Source of the DNA: Verrucomicrobiota bacterium
GTDB lineage: Bacteria > Verrucomicrobiota > Verrucomicrobiia > Limisphaerales > BJHT01
Assembly: GCA_014193395.1 (NCBI GenBank)
Contig: BJHT01000023.1
Span: 1-41,761, forward strand
Reading direction: 5' to 3'
DNA: 41,761 nt
Position numbers and translations under genes: made by a program. The notes beneath the pieces were generated by a model, which was not told where the DNA came from, searched no databases, and was given only the letters and a program-made list of their open reading frames with translations. Shown here piece after piece: positions 33,710 to 41,761 of the stretch (position 1 is its first letter; the number at the start of each line of letters is the position of its first letter).

Positions 33710-35035
33710 ATGCAACCCGCACCTGCAAAACCGTTGGTCGCCCTCGCGTGCGGCGGCACGGGCGGCCATCTGTTCCCCGGCCTCGCCATCGCCGACGCCC
33801 TGCAGCAGCGCGGTTGCGACATCCTCGTGCTCGTCTCGCCGAAAGAAGTGGACCAGCAGGCCGTGCGCTCCGTGCGCGGAATGCGCGTCGAAACCCTGCC
33901 CGCCGTGGGCCTCAGCCGCGGCGGCATCGGCCGTTTTGCACTCGGCTTTTTTCGTTCGCTCAATGCGGCCCGCCGGCTCTTCAAAACGACGCCCCCGCGC
34001 GCCGTGCTGGCGATGGGCGGCTTCACCAGCGCCCCGCCCGTGCTCGCCGGCAAGCTTCGCGGCGCGGCCACGTTTTTTCACGAGGCCAACGCCATTCCCG
34101 GCCGCGCCAACCGCCTGCTCGCGCACGTCGTGAACGAAGCCTTCGTCGGATTCGCCTCGGCCACCGATCATCTTTTTCTCCAACGCGTCACGACCACCGG
34201 CACGCCCGTGCGTTCGCAATTCATCGCGCAGCCACCGGCGTCCTGCCGCGCCGCGCTTGGTTTGAAATCTGACCGTCCCGTCCTGCTCGTCGTCGGTGGC
34301 AGCCAGGGCGCGAGCGGGGTCAACGACCTCGTGCTCGCCGCGCAACCACTGCTCGCCCGCGAGCAGCCCGAGCTGCAAATCCTCCATCTCACCGGCCCGG
34401 ACGATTTTGAAAAAGTCCGCGCCGCGTGGGCGGCCACGGGACAAAAAGCCGTCGTCCGCCCGTTCCTCACCGAAATGGAACTCGCGCTCGGCGCGGCCAC
34501 CGTAGCCGTCAGCCGTGCCGGCGCGTCGTCGCTCGCGGAATTCGCCGCCGTGCGCGTGCCGACCATCCTCGTCCCATATCCCGCCGCCGTGGACAATCAT
34601 CAGTTCCACAACGCCATGGCCCTCGTCCGCACCGGCGCGGCCGCGCTGCTCGAACAACGCGGCGCCACCGGCGAACAGCTCGCCCGCTTGATTCTCGATC
34701 TCCTCCGCGACCCCGCCGCCCGCGCCCGCATGACCGACGCCCTCGCCGCGTGGCATTTCCCCGCCGCCGCCGAACAAATCGCCGGCCGCATCGCCGACGT
34801 GATCGGCTGTGCGTCGCCGTCTCTCGCGGCGGGCGGTTTCTCCGCGGCTCAAAGTGGAAGGGCGGTGCAGCGGCTATCTCAACGCGAAGCTCAAAGCTCA
34901 AAGCTCAAAGCTCAAAGAAAGCTCCAAGCCCCAAGCCCCAAGCCCGCCCGCCCCTCGTTTGGTCCTTGTCCCTTGGCCCTTCCCTTGAGCTTTGAGCTTT
35001 ATCCTTGGAGCTTTTCTTCTTCCCCGCGCGCATGA
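33710..35035 (+). CDS. murG: Lipid II synthase MurG with repeat-derived C-terminal tail
   Basis: A 441-residue glycosyltransferase that adds GlcNAc to lipid I. Signatures: G-G-T-G-G-H-L-F-P-G-L-A (about 16-27), H-E-A-N-A-I-P-G-R-A-N-R, G-G-S-Q-G-A-S-G-V-N, and S-R-A-G-A-S-S-L-A-E-F with P-Y-P-A-A-V-D-N-H-Q. The normal fold seems to end near residue 370. The last roughly 70 residues (after A-S-P-S-L-A-A-G) are Lys/Gln/Ser/Pro-rich and then read L-P-L-S-F-E-L-Y-P-W-S-F. They are translated from a family H repeat element. The stop overlaps the next gene (ATGA). The upstream open frame crosses the family C repeat. Confidence 0.93.
   Translation: MQPAPAKPLVALACGGTGGHLFPGLAIADALQQRGCDILVLVSPKEVDQQAVRSVRGMRVETLPAVGLSRGGIGRFALGFFRSLNAARRLFKTTPPRAVLAMGGFTSAPPVLAGKLRGAATFFHEANAIPGRANRLLAHVVNEAFVGFASATDHLFLQRVTTTGTPVRSQFIAQPPASCRAALGLKSDRPVLLVVGGSQGASGVNDLVLAAQPLLAREQPELQILHLTGPDDFEKVRAAWAATGQKAVVRPFLTEMELALGAATVAVSRAGASSLAEFAAVRVPTILVPYPAAVDNHQFHNAMALVRTGAAALLEQRGATGEQLARLILDLLRDPAARARMTDALAAWHFPAAAEQIAGRIADVIGCASPSLAAGGFSAAQSGRAVQRLSQREAQSSKLKAQRKLQAPSPKPARPSFGPCPLALPLSFELYPWSFSSSPRA
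34886..35015. repeat. Family H repeat, copy 2, inside the end of murG
   Basis: The left part (34886-34930) is AAGCTCA repeated four times, then AAGCTCCAAGCCCC units. The right part (34959-35015) is the inverse type (CCTTGAGCTTTGAGCTTTAT). Pairing is imperfect. The sequence matches 18633-19041. It is translated in the murG frame and ends just before the murC start. Confidence 0.8.
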
Positions 35036-37479
35036 CCCGCATCGACCCCAGCCAAGTCAGCGCCATCCTCCGCGAGGCTCCGCCCGGCGGCGCCGTGCAT
35101 CTCATCGGCGCGGGCGGTTGCGGCATGAGCGGCCTGGGCCACCTGCTGCTCGATCTCGGCTTTGGCGTCAGCGGCTCGGACCTCTGCGAAAACGAAGACA
35201 TCGAAATCCTCCGTCGTCGCGGGGCACGCATCGGGGTGGGTCATGCCGTGTCCCACCTCGGCGACCCGCCGCCGTTCCTGGTGGTTTACTCGTCCGCCAT
35301 CCGGCTCGAGAACCCCGAGATTCTCGCCGCGCAGCAACTCCAGATTCCCATCGCGCGCCGCGCCAGCCTGCTCGCCGCGCTCGTGCGACGTCAGCGCGGC
35401 ATCTGCGTCGCCGGGATGCACGGCAAAACCACGACCACTTCGCTGCTCGCGTTCGCGCTCGAGAAATTGCAGGCCGAACCCAGCTTCGCTATCGGCGCGA
35501 CCGTGCCGCAACTGCCCCGCCACGCGCGCTTCAGCCGCGGCACCTCCCGCGAGCCGCTGCTCGTCGGCGGCGGTGCGGGCGCGGCTCCGAACGCCTTCGC
35601 TGTCGCCGGCCAGGACCGCTGGTTCGTCGTCGAGGCCGATGAAAGCGACGGCACGCTGCGCGAGTTCCACCCCGAGCACGCCATCGTCCTCAACGTCGAT
35701 GAAGAGCATCTCGACTACTACGAAACCTTCGAGGCCATTTGCGACGAGTTCCAACGTTTCGCCAGCCACACCAGCGGTCGCCTCGTTTACTGCGCCGACG
35801 ATCCGACCCTTGTCGCGCTCTTCGCCAGCCGGCCCGGCGCGATTTCCTACGGCTTCAATCCCGCCGCGCAGTTCCGTCTCGAAGCCGTGACCGTGCAGCC
35901 TGCGGCCGGCCGCCAACTCGCCGAGACGTTGTTTGAAATCCATCGCGGCACCACGCGGCTCGGCGGTTTTTCGCTCAACCTGGTCGGCGAAAAAAATGTC
36001 TCCAACGCCGCCGCCGTCGTCGCGCTGCTGACGGAACTCGGCTACGAAGCCGCCGACATCGCCCGCGCCCTCCGCGGTTTCACCGGCGCGGCGCGGCGGC
36101 AGGAACTGCTCCACAGCAGCCGCGAACATCGCATCTACGATGACTACGGCCATCATCCGCGCGAGATCGCCGCGACGCTGCGGGCGTTGAAACAGCTCGG
36201 CTGCGGGCGTTTGCTCGTCGCGTTCCAGCCGCATCGCTTCACCCGCACGCGCAGCCTGCTCGCGCAGTTCGCCACCTGTTTCAGCGACGCCGACTGCCTC
36301 TGGCTCACCGAGGTTTACGCAGCGAGCGAACCGGAAATCCCCGGCATCAACGGCGGCGTCCTCGCCGACGCCGTGCGCGCCCGCGGCCAGTCCGCGCGCT
36401 TCGTGCCCGTCCTCGACGACCTCGTCGCCGCCGTGCGCGCCGAAATGCGTCCCGGCGACCTCGTCCTCTTCCTCGGCGCGGGCGACATCACGCGCGTCGC
36501 CCATCAGCTCGCGGCGGAAATGAAAGCCGCCGTCGCGACCACCACGGCCGCTGTCGCTACCGCCGCCCCGTCCGCTCCGCTCGCCGCCGAACTCCGCGCC
36601 CTGCTCGCGCCCGGCACCGTGCTCCGCGAAAACGAACCGCTCGCCAAACGCACCACCCTGCGCGTCGGCGGCCCCGCGGACTTTTTCATCGAACCCGCTT
36701 CGGACGACGAGCTGGCGCGGCTCGCGCGCTTCTGCGCCGAACGCGCCGTGCCGTTCTTCGTGCTTGGGCGCGGCTCGAATCTCCTCGTGCGCGACGGCGG
36801 CATCCGCGGCGTGGTCGTGTCGCTCGCGCAGCCGCATTTCTCGCAGGTCGAGATACGCGGCGAGCGCCTGCACTGCGGCGCGGGCGCGAAATTGAAAACC
36901 GTCGCCGTCGAGGCCAAGCGCCACGGCCTGAGCGGACTCGAATTTCTCGAAGGCATCCCCGGCAGCGTCGGCGGCGCGTTGCGCATGAACGCGGGCGCGA
37001 TGGGTTCCTGGACCTTCGCCGCGCTCGAGTCGCTGCGCTTCATGGATTTCACCGGCCAGATTCACGAACGTCCGGTGGCCGAGGTCCCGGTGAAGTACCG
37101 CTCGTGCCCGCTGCTCCGCACGCACATCGCGCTCGGCGCGGTCTTTCGCGGACGCCCCGCGCCTCGCGACGAGATCGAGAAAACGATGCGCGCCAGCAAC
37201 GACAAGCGCTGGACCACCCAGCCCGCCGCGCCGAGCGCCGGCTGCATTTTCAAGAACCCCGGCCCCTGCCCCGCCGGCAAGCTGATCGACGAACTCGGCT
37301 TGAAGGGCCGCCGCGTCGGCGACGCCGTCGTCTCGGATGTCCACGGCAATTTCATCGTCAACGGCGGCCACGCCACCGCGCGCGACGTGCTCGAACTCAT
37401 TGAGCAAATCCGCGCGCACGTCCGCACCCAGCGCGGCCTCGAACTCGAAACCGAAGTCGAAATCATCGGCGAACCGTGA
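35032..37479 (+). CDS. murC-murB: MurC-MurB fusion: UDP-MurNAc-alanine ligase / UDP-GlcNAc-enolpyruvate reductase
   Basis: An 815-residue fusion of two consecutive wall enzymes. Residues 1-about 498 are MurC, which adds L-Ala: G-A-G-G-C-G-M-S-G-L (22-31), ATP loop G-M-H-G-K-T-T-T-T-S (about 126-135) and E-A-D-E-S-D-G-T. A Thr/Ala-rich linker spans about 499-518. MurB, the FAD enzyme reducing enolpyruvyl-GlcNAc, follows with R-V-G-G-P-A-D-F-F, G-R-G-S-N-L-L-V-R-D-G-G, G-I-P-G-S-V-G-G-A and A-G-C-I-F-K-N-P. The catalytic position often filled by Ser is Cys738. The stop overlaps ddl (GTGA). Confidence 0.95.
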   Translation: MTRIDPSQVSAILREAPPGGAVHLIGAGGCGMSGLGHLLLDLGFGVSGSDLCENEDIEILRRRGARIGVGHAVSHLGDPPPFLVVYSSAIRLENPEILAAQQLQIPIARRASLLAALVRRQRGICVAGMHGKTTTTSLLAFALEKLQAEPSFAIGATVPQLPRHARFSRGTSREPLLVGGGAGAAPNAFAVAGQDRWFVVEADESDGTLREFHPEHAIVLNVDEEHLDYYETFEAICDEFQRFASHTSGRLVYCADDPTLVALFASRPGAISYGFNPAAQFRLEAVTVQPAAGRQLAETLFEIHRGTTRLGGFSLNLVGEKNVSNAAAVVALLTELGYEAADIARALRGFTGAARRQELLHSSREHRIYDDYGHHPREIAATLRALKQLGCGRLLVAFQPHRFTRTRSLLAQFATCFSDADCLWLTEVYAASEPEIPGINGGVLADAVRARGQSARFVPVLDDLVAAVRAEMRPGDLVLFLGAGDITRVAHQLAAEMKAAVATTTAAVATAAPSAPLAAELRALLAPGTVLRENEPLAKRTTLRVGGPADFFIEPASDDELARLARFCAERAVPFFVLGRGSNLLVRDGGIRGVVVSLAQPHFSQVEIRGERLHCGAGAKLKTVAVEAKRHGLSGLEFLEGIPGSVGGALRMNAGAMGSWTFAALESLRFMDFTGQIHERPVAEVPVKYRSCPLLRTHIALGAVFRGRPAPRDEIEKTMRASNDKRWTTQPAAPSAGCIFKNPGPCPAGKLIDELGLKGRRVGDAVVSDVHGNFIVNGGHATARDVLELIEQIRAHVRTQRGLELETEVEIIGEP

Positions 37480-38411: not shown

Positions 38412-39371
38412 ATGGCTTGGCTTGGCAAAAATAAAAACAAACGGAAACGGCAGATGGAACGCCTCGACGTGAACCTGCGCAACGAGCGCGTGCGCGCCCA
38501 GCGCGTGCGCGTGCTCGGCGTCGGCTTCGGGTTGCTCTTCGCGCTCGTGGTCGTCGTGTTCGGCGTCTGGCGCGGCGGCGAGTGGGTGCTCGACCGCCTC
38601 GTGTTCGCCAGCGATCAGTTCGCCATCCAGCACATCGAGACGATCACCGACGGCGTGCTCGCGCCGCAGCACATCGAGAAATGGGCCGCCGTCCGCAAGG
38701 GCCAGAACCTGCTCGGGCTGAATCTCTGGGAGGTCAAACGCAACCTCGAGCTGGTGCCGATCATCCGCACCGCGTCCGTCGAGCGCACGCTGCCGCACAC
38801 GCTCCGCATCCGCGTCACCGAGCGCGAGCCGATCGCGCAGATCGTGTCACTCGCGGTCGATCCGAAGCAGGGCCTGCAAAACCGCGTGTATCACGTGGAC
38901 CCGACCGGCCACGTCATGAACCCGCTCGACCGCCGGCTCGCGGCCGATCCGGCGAGTTTGCCCGACGATTCCCTGCCGCTGCTCACCGGCGTGAACGCGG
39001 CCGATTTCAGCCTCGAGCGCGGCATTTCCACGCCCCAGTTCAAGGCGGCGATCCAGCTCATCGACCAGTTTGAAGGCTCGCCGATGTCCGGCGTGGTGGA
39101 CCTGCGGCGCATCGACGTTTCCGCGCCGGACGTGCTCACGGTCGTCACCGGCGCAGGCGCGGAAGTCACGCTGGCATTGCACGATTTGGAGAAGCAATTG
39201 CGCCGCTGGCGGCAGATTCACGAGGCCGGCGTCAAGCTCGGCAAACAGGTCGCCACGGCGGATTTGTCGGTCGTTCACAACATCCCCGTGCGCTGGCTCG
39301 AGCCGGGCCAGGCCCCGCCGCAAAACCCACCGCCGGTCAAAAGCACCCGGCCAAGGAGGAGACATGTTTGA
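38412..39371 (+). CDS. ftsQ: Cell division protein FtsQ
   Basis: A 319-residue bitopic division protein. A basic cytoplasmic tail (G-K-N-K-N-K-R-K-R) is followed by one membrane helix at about 34-53. An extracytoplasmic POTRA domain (about 70-150) starts F-A-I-Q-H-I-E and ends T-L-P-H-T-L-R-I-R-V-T-E-R-E-P-I-A. A second beta domain follows, and the tail is Pro/Arg-rich. FtsQ links the divisome to FtsL/FtsB and FtsWI. The ATG at 38412 is preferred over the GTG at 38406. The 3' end overlaps ftsA by eight bases. Confidence 0.9.
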   Translation: MAWLGKNKNKRKRQMERLDVNLRNERVRAQRVRVLGVGFGLLFALVVVVFGVWRGGEWVLDRLVFASDQFAIQHIETITDGVLAPQHIEKWAAVRKGQNLLGLNLWEVKRNLELVPIIRTASVERTLPHTLRIRVTEREPIAQIVSLAVDPKQGLQNRVYHVDPTGHVMNPLDRRLAADPASLPDDSLPLLTGVNAADFSLERGISTPQFKAAIQLIDQFEGSPMSGVVDLRRIDVSAPDVLTVVTGAGAEVTLALHDLEKQLRRWRQIHEAGVKLGKQVATADLSVVHNIPVRWLEPGQAPPQNPPPVKSTRPRRRHV

Positions 39372-40602
39372 GAAGAAACGCACCATCATCGGACTGGAAA
39401 CCGGCACCGCGAAAATCCGCGTCGCCGTCGGCGAGCAGAGCGCCACGGGCGCGCTCAACATCGTTCACGTCAGCGAGGTCGAGTCCAACGGCGTGGTCAA
39501 GGGCGAGATCGTGAATCCGGGCGCGGCGCTCGAGGACCTGCGCAACGCGCTGGCCGACGCCGAGGACCAGGCCAACGTCGAGATCACCCACGTCGTCCTC
39601 GGCGTCACCGGCCGCCACGTCTCCGGCTTCAACAACCGCGGCGTGAAAATGATCCCCTCCGCCGACCGCGAGATCACCGAAGAGGATGTCGAGGACGTGC
39701 TCAAGGACGCCCGGGCCGTCGCGCTCCCGAACGGCCACTGCATGATCCATTGCATCCGGCAGAATTTTAACGTCGATGACCGCACCAACTTGCCCAGCCC
39801 CGTGGGCATTTGCGGCAGCCGCCTCGAGTCCTATCTCCACGTCGTGCATGGCAACAAGGACCGCAGCCAGACGGCCTTCAAGCTCCTCAAGCAGCTCGAA
39901 CTCGGCGTGGACGAAATGGCTTTCAACGGTCTCGCCTCGGCCATGTCCCTCCTCGAACCCGAGCACAAGGAACTGGGCGCGCTCGTGATTGATCTCGGCG
40001 CGGGCACGACCGAATTCGTGGTCTATGCCAACCGCATCATCAAGCACACCGGCGTTGTCGCCGTCGGCGGCCACAATGTCACCAACGACCTCGCCCTCGG
40101 CCTGCGCGTCTCGCAGGTCCAGGCCGAGCAGCTCAAACTCAAACACGGCGAGGCCATCGCTGACGACAGTTGCAAAGGCCAGATCATCACCCTGCCCACC
40201 GATGTCGGACTGCCCGCGCGCTCCGTCAATCTCGAGCATCTCCGCCGCATCCAGGCGCTGCGTTTGACCGAAACCTTCGAGATCATTGCTGATGCCCTGA
40301 CCGACAATGACCTGTGGGAATGCCTCGGCGCGGGCGTGTTCCTCTGCGGCGGTGGCAGCCGCACGCCGCGCATCCAGGAACTCGCCGAAAAAGTTTTTCA
40401 GCTTCCCGTCACGCTCGGCAAATCCAGCCTCAGCGGCCCCACCAGCGTGACCTCCGTGCCCGAGTTCCAGGCCGCCATCGGCCTCGTCCGCTTCGGCGCC
40501 TCCCAGCGCGCCCGCCGCTCCACCGGCGACTCCTTCATGGAACGCCTCGCCGAACCGCTGAAAGCCATCTCGGCGTGGCGCAACCCTGTCAAAGCGCGGT
40601 AA
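39364..40602 (+). CDS. ftsA: Cell division protein FtsA
   Basis: A 412-residue actin-like ATPase that tethers FtsZ to the membrane. Phosphate loops G-L-E-T-G-T-A-K-I-R (about 10-19) and I-D-L-G-A-G-T-T-E-F (about 209-218), an SHS2-like 1C domain between them, and the adenosine motif C-G-G-G-S-R-T-P (about 330). The end M-E-R-L-A-E-P-L-K-A-I-S-A-W-R forms a good amphipathic membrane-targeting helix. The start is fixed by a near-perfect Shine-Dalgarno AAGGAGGAG at 39353-39361, inside the end of ftsQ. Confidence 0.95.
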   Translation: MFEKKRTIIGLETGTAKIRVAVGEQSATGALNIVHVSEVESNGVVKGEIVNPGAALEDLRNALADAEDQANVEITHVVLGVTGRHVSGFNNRGVKMIPSADREITEEDVEDVLKDARAVALPNGHCMIHCIRQNFNVDDRTNLPSPVGICGSRLESYLHVVHGNKDRSQTAFKLLKQLELGVDEMAFNGLASAMSLLEPEHKELGALVIDLGAGTTEFVVYANRIIKHTGVVAVGGHNVTNDLALGLRVSQVQAEQLKLKHGEAIADDSCKGQIITLPTDVGLPARSVNLEHLRRIQALRLTETFEIIADALTDNDLWECLGAGVFLCGGGSRTPRIQELAEKVFQLPVTLGKSSLSGPTSVTSVPEFQAAIGLVRFGASQRARRSTGDSFMERLAEPLKAISAWRNPVKAR

Positions 40603-40622: not shown

Positions 40623-41761
40623 ATGATCCATCACACCGATTACCCGGCCGACGCCCCTGAACCCGCCGCCGCGCCGCGCCCGCTCACCGTCCGCTTCTTC
40701 GGCGTCGGCGACGCCGGCTGCAAAGCCCTCGAACACCTCGCGCGCCTCGGCTTCACCAACGCCGAGTTCATCGCCGTCAACACCGACAGCCACGCGCTGC
40801 ACGCCTGCGCCATCGCGCACAAACTGCCCATCGGCGCGCGCACCACGCACGGCCTCGGCACCGGCGGCGACATGCAGATCGGCCACACCGCCGCGCAGGA
40901 AGGCCTCGACCGCATGCGCCACTGGTGCAAAGGCGCGGACCTCGTCTTCTTCCTCACCAGCCTCGGCGGCGGCACCGGCTCCGGCGCGACCCCCGTGCTC
41001 GCCCGCCTCGCGCGCGAGTGCGAAGCCCTCGTGATCGTCATGGCCACGCTGCCCTTCGAGTTCGAAAGCCACGCCCGCCACCGCACCGCTGGCAACGCCC
41101 TCGACCAGCTCAAAGCCGCCGCGGATGCCGTCGTCACGCTCCCCCTCGCCAAACTCCTGAAACTCACCGGCGAAAATCCCGCCGTACCGCAAAGCCTCGC
41201 GCTCACCTACGACTTGCTCGGCCAGTCCGTCGCCGGCATCTGGCGGCTGCTCCACGGCGACCATCTGCTCAAGCTCGATTTCGCCAACCTCCGCGCCGTC
41301 TTCCGCGGGCGCCACGCCGAGAGCGCCTTCGCCACCGTCGAAGCCACCGGCCCCAACCGCGCCCGCGAGATCATGGAAAAACTCACCGCGCACCCGCTCC
41401 TCGAGCACGGCCAGATCCTCGCCGAAGCCACCTCCGTCCTCGTCAGCTTCGCCGCCGCCGGCGACCTCGGCATGAACGAAATCGGCCGCGTCATGGAAGA
41501 CCTCAACCGCCACTGCGTCCACGCCCAGCCCGCCTTCGGTGCCGTCCTCGACCCCGCGCTCGGCGAACGCCTCCTCGTCACCGTCTTCGCCGCCCGCCAC
41601 TCCTCCGCCAGGCATCTCCCCCACACCCCTGCGCCTCCCGCGCACCTCGTCACCGCACCCCCGCCCGCCCCCGCTCCCGTGCCCTCGTCCGCGCCCCCCC
41701 CCCCCCCCGCACCCCTCCTTAGACCCCTCCCAGAAATCCTCCGTCCCCCACTCCACCCCCC
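40623..41761 (+). CDS. ftsZ: Divergent FtsZ, 3' end outside the window
   Basis: At least 379 residues of an FtsZ/tubulin family protein; the frame is still open at the window end. The signature G115-G-G-T-G-S-G121 is intact. Other GTP loops deviate: T1 reads G-V-G-D-A-G-C-K (27-34) instead of G-V-G-G-G-G-G-N; P-N-D-K-L of T6 is P-L-A-K-L; T7 reads L-K217-L-D219-F-A-N222, where FtsZ usually has N-x-D-F-A-D. The C-terminal domain is recognisable (A-R-E-I-M-E-K-L, M-E-D-L-N). After about residue 325 a Pro/Ala-rich linker begins. It lies 20 bp after ftsA, the usual ftsZ place. Confidence 0.88.
   Translation, partial: MIHHTDYPADAPEPAAAPRPLTVRFFGVGDAGCKALEHLARLGFTNAEFIAVNTDSHALHACAIAHKLPIGARTTHGLGTGGDMQIGHTAAQEGLDRMRHWCKGADLVFFLTSLGGGTGSGATPVLARLARECEALVIVMATLPFEFESHARHRTAGNALDQLKAAADAVVTLPLAKLLKLTGENPAVPQSLALTYDLLGQSVAGIWRLLHGDHLLKLDFANLRAVFRGRHAESAFATVEATGPNRAREIMEKLTAHPLLEHGQILAEATSVLVSFAAAGDLGMNEIGRVMEDLNRHCVHAQPAFGAVLDPALGERLLVTVFAARHSSARHLPHTPAPPAHLVTAPPPAPAPVPSSAPPPPPAPLLRPLPEILRPPLHP
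41694..41708. other. Run of 15 C near the window end
   Basis: Fifteen consecutive C residues lie inside the FtsZ linker, and the sequence after them is C-rich to the end of the window. Such a run at a possible contig edge is prone to sequencing or assembly error, so the reading frame after 41693 is uncertain. Confidence 0.7.

What the first reader, a model, noticed from the sequence alone, without database searches (positions are those of the whole stretch)
40623..41761. dcw-encoded FtsZ lacks key residues of the GTP-hydrolysing T7 loop
FtsZ hydrolyses GTP at the subunit interface. The T7 loop of one subunit (N207, D209, D212 in E. coli numbering) acts on the nucleotide of the next. Here the loop reads K-L-D-F-A-N, so only the middle Asp remains. 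T1 (D-A-G-C-K for G-G-G-G-N) and T6 (P-L-A-K-L for P-N-D-K-L) are also changed, while the GGGTGSG signature is kept. Either this lineage divides with a slowly hydrolysing or non-hydrolysing FtsZ, or the loop chemistry has been rebuilt. The position directly after ftsA argues against a mere paralogue.
Basis: partly seen in the sequence, partly recalled or inferred. Interest (0 to 1): 0.78.

Follow-up and report, generated by a model that had tools for sequence, protein, structure and literature searches.

The report
Division protein missing its catalytic residues
The only copy of FtsZ (the filament protein that organises bacterial cell division) found in this bacterium's draft genome has lost two of the three loop residues that other FtsZs use to split GTP, and most of the related bacteria checked have changed one or more of the same three, so this group likely divides with a slowed or rebuilt FtsZ engine.

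Summary
The ORF directly after ftsA is an FtsZ orthologue whose T7 loop reads K-L-D-F-A-N, with two of three catalytic-loop residues changed. It is the only tubulin/FtsZ match found in its own draft genome, and a sister genome also has one. Five full-length relatives share the K-x-D-x-x-(N/T) loop. The ftsZ core is under strong purifying selection (dN/dS 0.03), the predicted fold is FtsZ, and the FtsA-binding tail is intact in those relatives.

It is not an isolated oddity. Of 283 readable genomes of the phylum, 222 lack the exact N-D-D triple, against 0 of 120 Bacteroidota controls. 120 of 120 Verrucomicrobiaceae-type homologues lack D209. Losses of D209 and D212 avoid each other: both are gone in 9 of 283, where independence predicts about 36. 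The arginine-finger residue is R/K in 201 of 220 deviant genomes. This argues for a GTPase run on one T7 carboxylate rather than an abandoned one.

In S. aureus FtsZ, N208L and D213N abolish assembly, so natural proteins changed at these positions as the apparently sole FtsZ are surprising and testable. Whether hydrolysis is slow, absent or chemically rebuilt cannot be decided from sequence.

The parts
40623..41761 (+). ftsZ (379 aa seen, truncated by the contig end; 455 aa in the sister genome)
   Evidence: PF00091 E 5.7e-31 and PF12327 E 2.6e-10; TIGR00065 208.3 bits, below its 295.2 cut-off
40701..40724 (+). T1 phosphate loop GVGDAGCK (relatives mostly GVGGAGCN: G->D, N25->K)
40779..40793 (+). 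T2 loop NTDSH (N44 and D46 kept, Q48->H; S. aureus numbering)
40965..40985 (+). T4 tubulin signature GGGTGSG, intact
41076..41078 (+). R152, equivalent of the arginine-finger-like R143 of S. aureus FtsZ, kept
   Evidence: role from PMC8936486 passages
41142..41156 (+). T6 PLAKL (relatives mostly PNQ(K/R))
41271..41288 (+). T7 catalytic (synergy) loop K217-L-D219-F-A-N222 instead of N-x-D-F-A-D
39364..40602 (+). ftsA, immediate upstream neighbour (412 aa)
41625..41761 (+). proline-rich end of the ORF running into poly-C; departs from the sister genome, probable contig-edge noise

Best explanation
The gene encodes the only FtsZ found in this draft genome, set directly after ftsA, whose T7 loop reads K-L-D-F-A-N where canonical FtsZ has N-x-D-F-A-D, and it likely still drives division as an FtsA-tethered filament that hydrolyses GTP slowly with its single remaining T7 aspartate. 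Inferred mechanism: GTP still binds in a largely conserved pocket (T2 Asp, T3 Gly, T4 signature and arginine-finger Arg are kept). The T7 loop of the next subunit docks on it and D209 positions the attacking water. Without the D212 carboxylate and the N207/Q48 pair (which in S. aureus holds a K+ ion), hydrolysis and filament turnover would be slowed. This is one instance of a phylum-wide, recurrent change in which at least one T7 acid is nearly always kept.
Against: In S. aureus FtsZ, N208L and D213N each abolish assembly, and the paper says changes at these positions inactivate E. coli FtsZ in complementation (PMC8936486 passages). By that standard this protein should not polymerise at all unless other changes compensate, so 'slow but working' is not the straightforward prediction. 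No activity was measured. The mutual-exclusion signal is modest once phylogeny is allowed for (independent-pairs p range 0.002-0.45); in the class sample it rests on a few families that each lost one acid. 9 of 283 genomes lack both acids yet keep an ftsZ. The protein is under the TIGR00065 FtsZ cut-off.
Confidence: 0.55

Rival explanations
1. Rebuilt chemistry: near-normal GTPase with a substituted active site. The K217 ammonium would sit where S. aureus FtsZ holds a K+ ion (its ligands N208 and Q48 are both replaced here), and T1 changes (G->D, N->K/R) would supply further contacts.
For: N207 is K in 6 of 6 clade members and K/R in 116 of 120 Verrucomicrobiaceae-type homologues, with Q48 replaced in all 126. 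N208 and Q48 side chains coordinate K+ (PMC8936486 passages). N207 loss goes with Q48 loss by genome (134 of 152 versus 70 of 128; p 5e-10) and by family (p 0.001). Strong purifying selection.
Against: In the census, K/R at 207 is not linked to Q48 loss (14 of 20 versus 190 of 260; p 0.80), and the N207-Q48 link is not significant on independent pairs (median p 0.5). No model of the filament interface could be made.
Confidence: 0.25
2. Non-hydrolysing scaffold: FtsZ binds GTP and assembles without hydrolysis; turnover comes from other factors, and septal wall synthesis does the work.
For: Two of three T7 residues plus Q48 are gone. [quoted passage not shown] No ZapA and no MinC match in the own genome (weak, see Tried and rejected).
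Against: D209, R143, D46 and G72 equivalents are invariant in the clade, and acids 209/212 are rarely lost together, which is hard to explain if catalysis had been dropped. [quoted passage not shown]
Confidence: 0.12
3. The gene is a decaying or dispensable paralogue, or an assembly error, and a canonical FtsZ does the job.
For: The genome is a 730-contig draft with 5.8% contamination, so a second copy could be missed. 7 of 183 order genomes and 3 of 114 phylum genomes show two matches; some may be split genes, which was not checked.
Against: One match each in two genomes of 95-96% completeness. Of 17 single-contig genomes in the two samples, 12 could be read at T7; all 12 deviate and 11 of them have only one match (3 unreadable, 2 not fetched). 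dN/dS 0.03. dcw position and C-terminal peptide kept.
Confidence: 0.05

Closest known systems
Canonical bacterial FtsZ (E. coli, P. aeruginosa, S. aureus)
   Same: Fold, GGGTGSG signature, T2 Asp, arginine-finger Arg, D209, dcw position after ftsA, C-terminal FtsA-binding peptide in the full-length relatives
   Different: N207->K, D212->N, Q48->H, T1 N25->K, T6 N->L
Verrucomicrobiaceae-type FtsZ (named members: Verrucomicrobium, Roseimicrobium, Prosthecobacter)
   Same: Also departs from the T7 triple: K/R at 207 in 116 of 120, Q48 replaced in 120 of 120. ftsZ is essential by transposon sequencing in V. spinosum (PMC12283558 passages)
   Different: Loses D209 and keeps D212, the opposite of this clade
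Engineered slow or dead FtsZ: E. coli D212A; S. aureus D213N, N208L, Q48A
   Same: The same positions are changed (PMC8142252, PMC4383033, PMC8936486 passages)
   Different: Laboratory mutants; S. aureus D213N and N208L do not assemble, whereas here changes at these positions are the natural and apparently sole state
Candidatus Thiosymbion oneisti FtsZ
   Same: A natural FtsZ reported with low GTPase activity (PMC8953583 passages)
   Different: The paper reports conserved GTP-binding and catalytic residues and a fairly conserved T7 loop
Beta-tubulin T7 face (recalled, not tested)
   Same: Lys replaces the catalytic acid of alpha-tubulin, giving a non-hydrolysing interface
   Different: Tubulin is a heterodimer with one active and one inactive interface; here every interface would be alike

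Membership tests
FtsZ (orthologue of the division protein) | Tubulin/FtsZ GTPase domain and FtsZ C-terminal domain | tested here: met
   PF00091 108.7 bits (cut-off 33), PF12327 40.9 bits (cut-off 27)
FtsZ (orthologue of the division protein) | FtsZ fold | tested here: met
FtsZ (orthologue of the division protein) | dcw position after ftsA and C-terminal FtsA-binding peptide | tested here: met
   ftsA 20 bp upstream; DLDIPT in P0002-P0006. The window's own C-terminus is cut off by the contig end
FtsZ (orthologue of the division protein) | Score over the NCBIfam TIGR00065 equivalog cut-off | tested here: not met
   208.3 versus 295.2 bits. Only 11 of 115 genomes of the phylum pass, against 13 of the 14 control genomes, so I take it as a naming threshold that most of this phylum fails rather than a test of ancestry
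Canonical hydrolysing FtsZ active site | T7 N-x-D-x-x-D (N207, D209, D212) | tested here: not met
   K, D, N; filed as an FtsZ orthologue that works like FtsZ, not as a canonical FtsZ active site
Canonical hydrolysing FtsZ active site | Arginine-finger-like residue and T2 Asp | tested here: met
   R152 and D55, 6 of 6 clade members
Canonical hydrolysing FtsZ active site | GTP-dependent assembly and GTPase | not testable with these tools
   needs protein
Tubulin/BtubAB, TubZ or FtsZ-like paralogue | A second, different superfamily member in the genome | tested here: not met
   one PF00091 match in G000 and one in G001, both drafts

The most novel reading that the evidence does not exclude
A whole bacterial phylum has taken the FtsZ engine apart and rebuilt it many times: division filaments run on a single T7 carboxylate, either one, and in this clade and in Verrucomicrobiaceae a built-in Lys/Arg stands in for the potassium ion of the canonical active site, so the canonical fast-GTPase treadmilling motor is not a universal requirement for FtsZ-based division.
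Probability: 0.3. Interest if true: 0.88.

Novelty: new variant of a known kind. Interest (0 to 1): 0.72.

Why it matters
FtsZ treadmilling powered by GTP hydrolysis is widely held to organise septal wall synthesis (recalled), and residues N208, D210 and D213 are described as conserved across species and needed for assembly (PMC8936486 passages). A phylum in which these residues vary in the apparently only FtsZ, including cultured genera and the family of the genetically tractable V. spinosum (where ftsZ is essential; PMC12283558 passages), turns 'how much hydrolysis does division need, and which residues truly do it?' into a comparative experiment with dozens of natural variants. It would also bear on how the related phyla Planctomycetota and Chlamydiota came to lose FtsZ: weakening of the engine may have come first (inference).

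Tried and rejected
Sequencing error or pseudogene: rejected (identical codons in two genomes, dN/dS 0.03). Second canonical FtsZ: searched by PF00091 in G000 and G001, none found. Lineage-specific oddity: rejected by the census.

A T1 Asp as a rebuilt catalytic acid: in the order, T1 Asp occurs in 10 of about 125 genomes with a deviant T7 and in 1 of 53 with the exact triple, too few and too clustered to build on. K/R at 207 as a general partner of Q48 loss: not supported (p 0.80). A filament-interface model was not made: the structure tool takes single proteins and the session's data folder held no coordinates. ZapA and MinC: no match in the own genome, but ZapA rings in only 4 and MinC in only 6 of the 14 control genomes, so this says little.

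Literature: ten searches. None of the titles and abstract starts listed, and none of the passages I opened, reported T7 loss in Verrucomicrobiota FtsZ. PMC1845146 (passages) calls V. spinosum FtsZ canonical in its title, while noting 8 changes at positions conserved in the other sequences compared; the words loop and synergy do not occur in its text. A likely relevant older paper (PMC2347405) is not held. Ten papers were seen as passages only; none was read whole.

Limits: T7 was read by profile alignment; 6 of 289 loci were unreadable there. D->E counts as a change in the 'exact triple' but not as loss of an acid. Seven genomes of one genus (g109) were not fetched, to stay under the cap, so 106 of the 113 matched phylum genomes other than G000 were fetched. 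Tree: FastTree, 282 rows, T7 columns removed, with warnings of long branches that meet, so minimum change counts (18 for the exact triple, 25 for D209, 26 for D212, 36 for N207) are rough. The 120 Bacteroidota controls are the listed best of 8000 matches to one Bacteroidetes query, and the 120 Verrucomicrobiaceae-type proteins the listed best of 1451 matches to one query; most are unnamed, so the group labels rest on the query and on the named rows. This is one phylum's control, not a survey of Bacteria. The alignment for the structure job used 30 of the 121 homologues. A first ftsA mapping used an off-by-one translation and was redone.

Full report

THE LOOP. T7 is AAG-CTC-GAT-TTC-GCC-AAC, K-L-D-F-A-N (41271-41288), against N-x-D-F-A-D. 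The sister genome G001 has the same codons. Using the six residues that PMC8936486 names as key for S. aureus FtsZ (passages): D46 kept, Q48->H, R143 kept, N208->K, D210 kept, D213->N (S. aureus N208/D210/D213 = E. coli N207/D209/D212, recalled). In that paper N208L, D210N and D213N abolish assembly, while Q48A and R143K are about 6-fold slower but assemble. E. coli D212A keeps about 7% of the GTPase (PMC8142252 passage).

ITS CLADE. The protein search lists P0002-P0006 at 64-98% identity, then a drop to 51% or less (120 listed of 587). All six, the window's protein included, share K at 207, D at 209 and N (5) or T (1) at 212, T6 PL(A/G/P)K and T1 GD(A/G)GC(K/R). The five full-length members end in DLDIPT followed by F or V and a basic stretch. 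Between G000 and G001 the ftsZ core has dN/dS 0.03 (4 nonsynonymous differences), ftsA 0.108: the altered loop sits in a gene under strong purifying selection.

SINGLE COPY. PF00091 finds one match in G000 and one in G001. Of 183 order genomes with a match, 176 have one; of 114 in the phylum search, 111 have one. Seventeen genomes of the two samples are single contigs: 12 could be read at T7, all 12 deviate and 11 of them have one match; 3 were unreadable and 2 not fetched. In the order, 13 of 196 genomes gave no match at all.

THE WIDER PATTERN. I read T7 in 283 genomes: 181 of 183 in the same order, 28 of 31 fetched elsewhere in the class, 74 of 75 elsewhere in the phylum. The exact N-D-D triple is present in 54, 0 and 7. 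D209 is not acidic in 83, 13 and 16; D212 is not acidic in 36, 15 and 41. Among 120 listed homologues of a Verrucomicrobiaceae-type query none keeps D209; named members include Verrucomicrobium sp. BvORR106, Roseimicrobium and Prosthecobacter. Among 120 listed homologues of a Bacteroidetes query all 120 keep the triple and also Q48 and R143. On a tree built without the T7 columns the triple changes state at least 18 times (rough tree). Of 84 mapped loci with flanks, 81 have ftsA upstream by a strict test; in the other three the ftsA match lies inside the unusually long stop-to-stop frame of ftsZ. Of 112 ORFs that end within their locus, 66 of 80 deviant or unread and 31 of 32 canonical proteins carry a strict C-terminal peptide; 13 of the 14 strict misses among the former carry a close variant (e.g. 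EDLDQPTY, QQLDVPTY), read by eye, and one lacks it. The other 177 of 289 ORFs were cut before their end and could not be judged.

A ONE-ACID RULE. D209 and D212 are both lost in 9 of 283 genomes, D209 alone in 103, D212 alone in 83, neither in 88; independence predicts about 36 double losses (Fisher p 8e-14). On one genome per family (91) the table is 3/32/21/35, p 0.003; on 18 independent pairs the median p is 0.039 (range 0.002-0.45). The pattern holds separately in order (7 versus 16.5 expected), class (0 versus 7.0) and phylum (2 versus 8.9), though in the class sample a few families make the whole signal. The arginine-finger position is R/K in 201 of 220 deviant genomes and 61 of 61 canonical ones, and T2 D46 is acidic in 200 of 220 and 55 of 60. 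By contrast Q48 is kept in 42 of 220 deviants (34 of 60 canonical) and T1 N25 in 58 of 219 (53 of 60). I read this as relaxed but not abandoned catalysis (inference).

HOW IT LIKELY WORKS. Shown: sequence, neighbourhood, single match, selection, fold prediction, census. Inferred: GTP binding and assembly; slow hydrolysis by D209 with the arginine finger; tethering by FtsA through the tail. Speculative: K217 filling the K+ site. The N208/Q48 K+ ligands are both replaced here and in the Verrucomicrobiaceae-type proteins with K/R at 207, but in the wider census K/R at 207 does not go with Q48 loss (p 0.80).

AGAINST THIS READING. S. aureus data predict that D213N and N208 changes should stop assembly altogether (N208L was tested there, not N208K). 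The protein may have compensating changes, or may not hydrolyse at all. No biochemical data on a Verrucomicrobiota FtsZ turned up in the listings of ten literature searches. V. spinosum ftsZ is essential and its cells divide by binary fission (PMC12283558 passages), which suggests that FtsZ of that family works in vivo. V. spinosum's own T7 was not retrieved by name here; the 120 homologues, among them one named Verrucomicrobium sp. BvORR106, are the evidence.

VERDICT. Observation confirmed, interpretation partly supported, and the phenomenon is larger than the finding: recurrent change of T7 catalytic residues in the apparently sole FtsZ across Verrucomicrobiota. A new variant of a known kind, with a direct bench test.

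Noticed in passing
window 35005-37479: murC and murB appear fused in one 824-aa ORF (names recalled from the translation), as reported for V. spinosum (PMC12283558 passages).
   Followed up: no
L004 (CAMAUZ010000080.1): Sister genome G001 (7.9 Mb) lies in a record titled Akkermansia muciniphila; its size suggests the record is misnamed.
   Followed up: partly
G089 and G122: Two order genomes of 92% and 94% completeness gave no FtsZ/tubulin match in two searches; either gaps or real loss of FtsZ.
   Followed up: partly
L284, L287, L288 (family f65): Small genomes (2.3-2.5 Mb) with FtsZ so divergent that T7 could not be aligned; L287 still ends in an FtsA-type peptide (NLDLPAFLRKG).
   Followed up: partly
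L290-L293 (family f21, genus g75): FtsZ whose T4 signature is also broken (e.g. LGGDFTGEF); L291-L293 also lack both T7 acids (L290 has Glu at the D209 position). Candidates for a truly non-hydrolysing FtsZ.
   Followed up: no
L198, L206, L215 and others outside the class: The glycines of T4 vary too (MGRGTATGA, FGRGTGTGG) in several families.
   Followed up: no
window 41700-41761: Poly-C run at the contig edge; the ORF's last residues are unreliable.
   Followed up: yes
G000: No ZapA (PF05164) or MinC (PF03775) match in the genome.
   Followed up: partly
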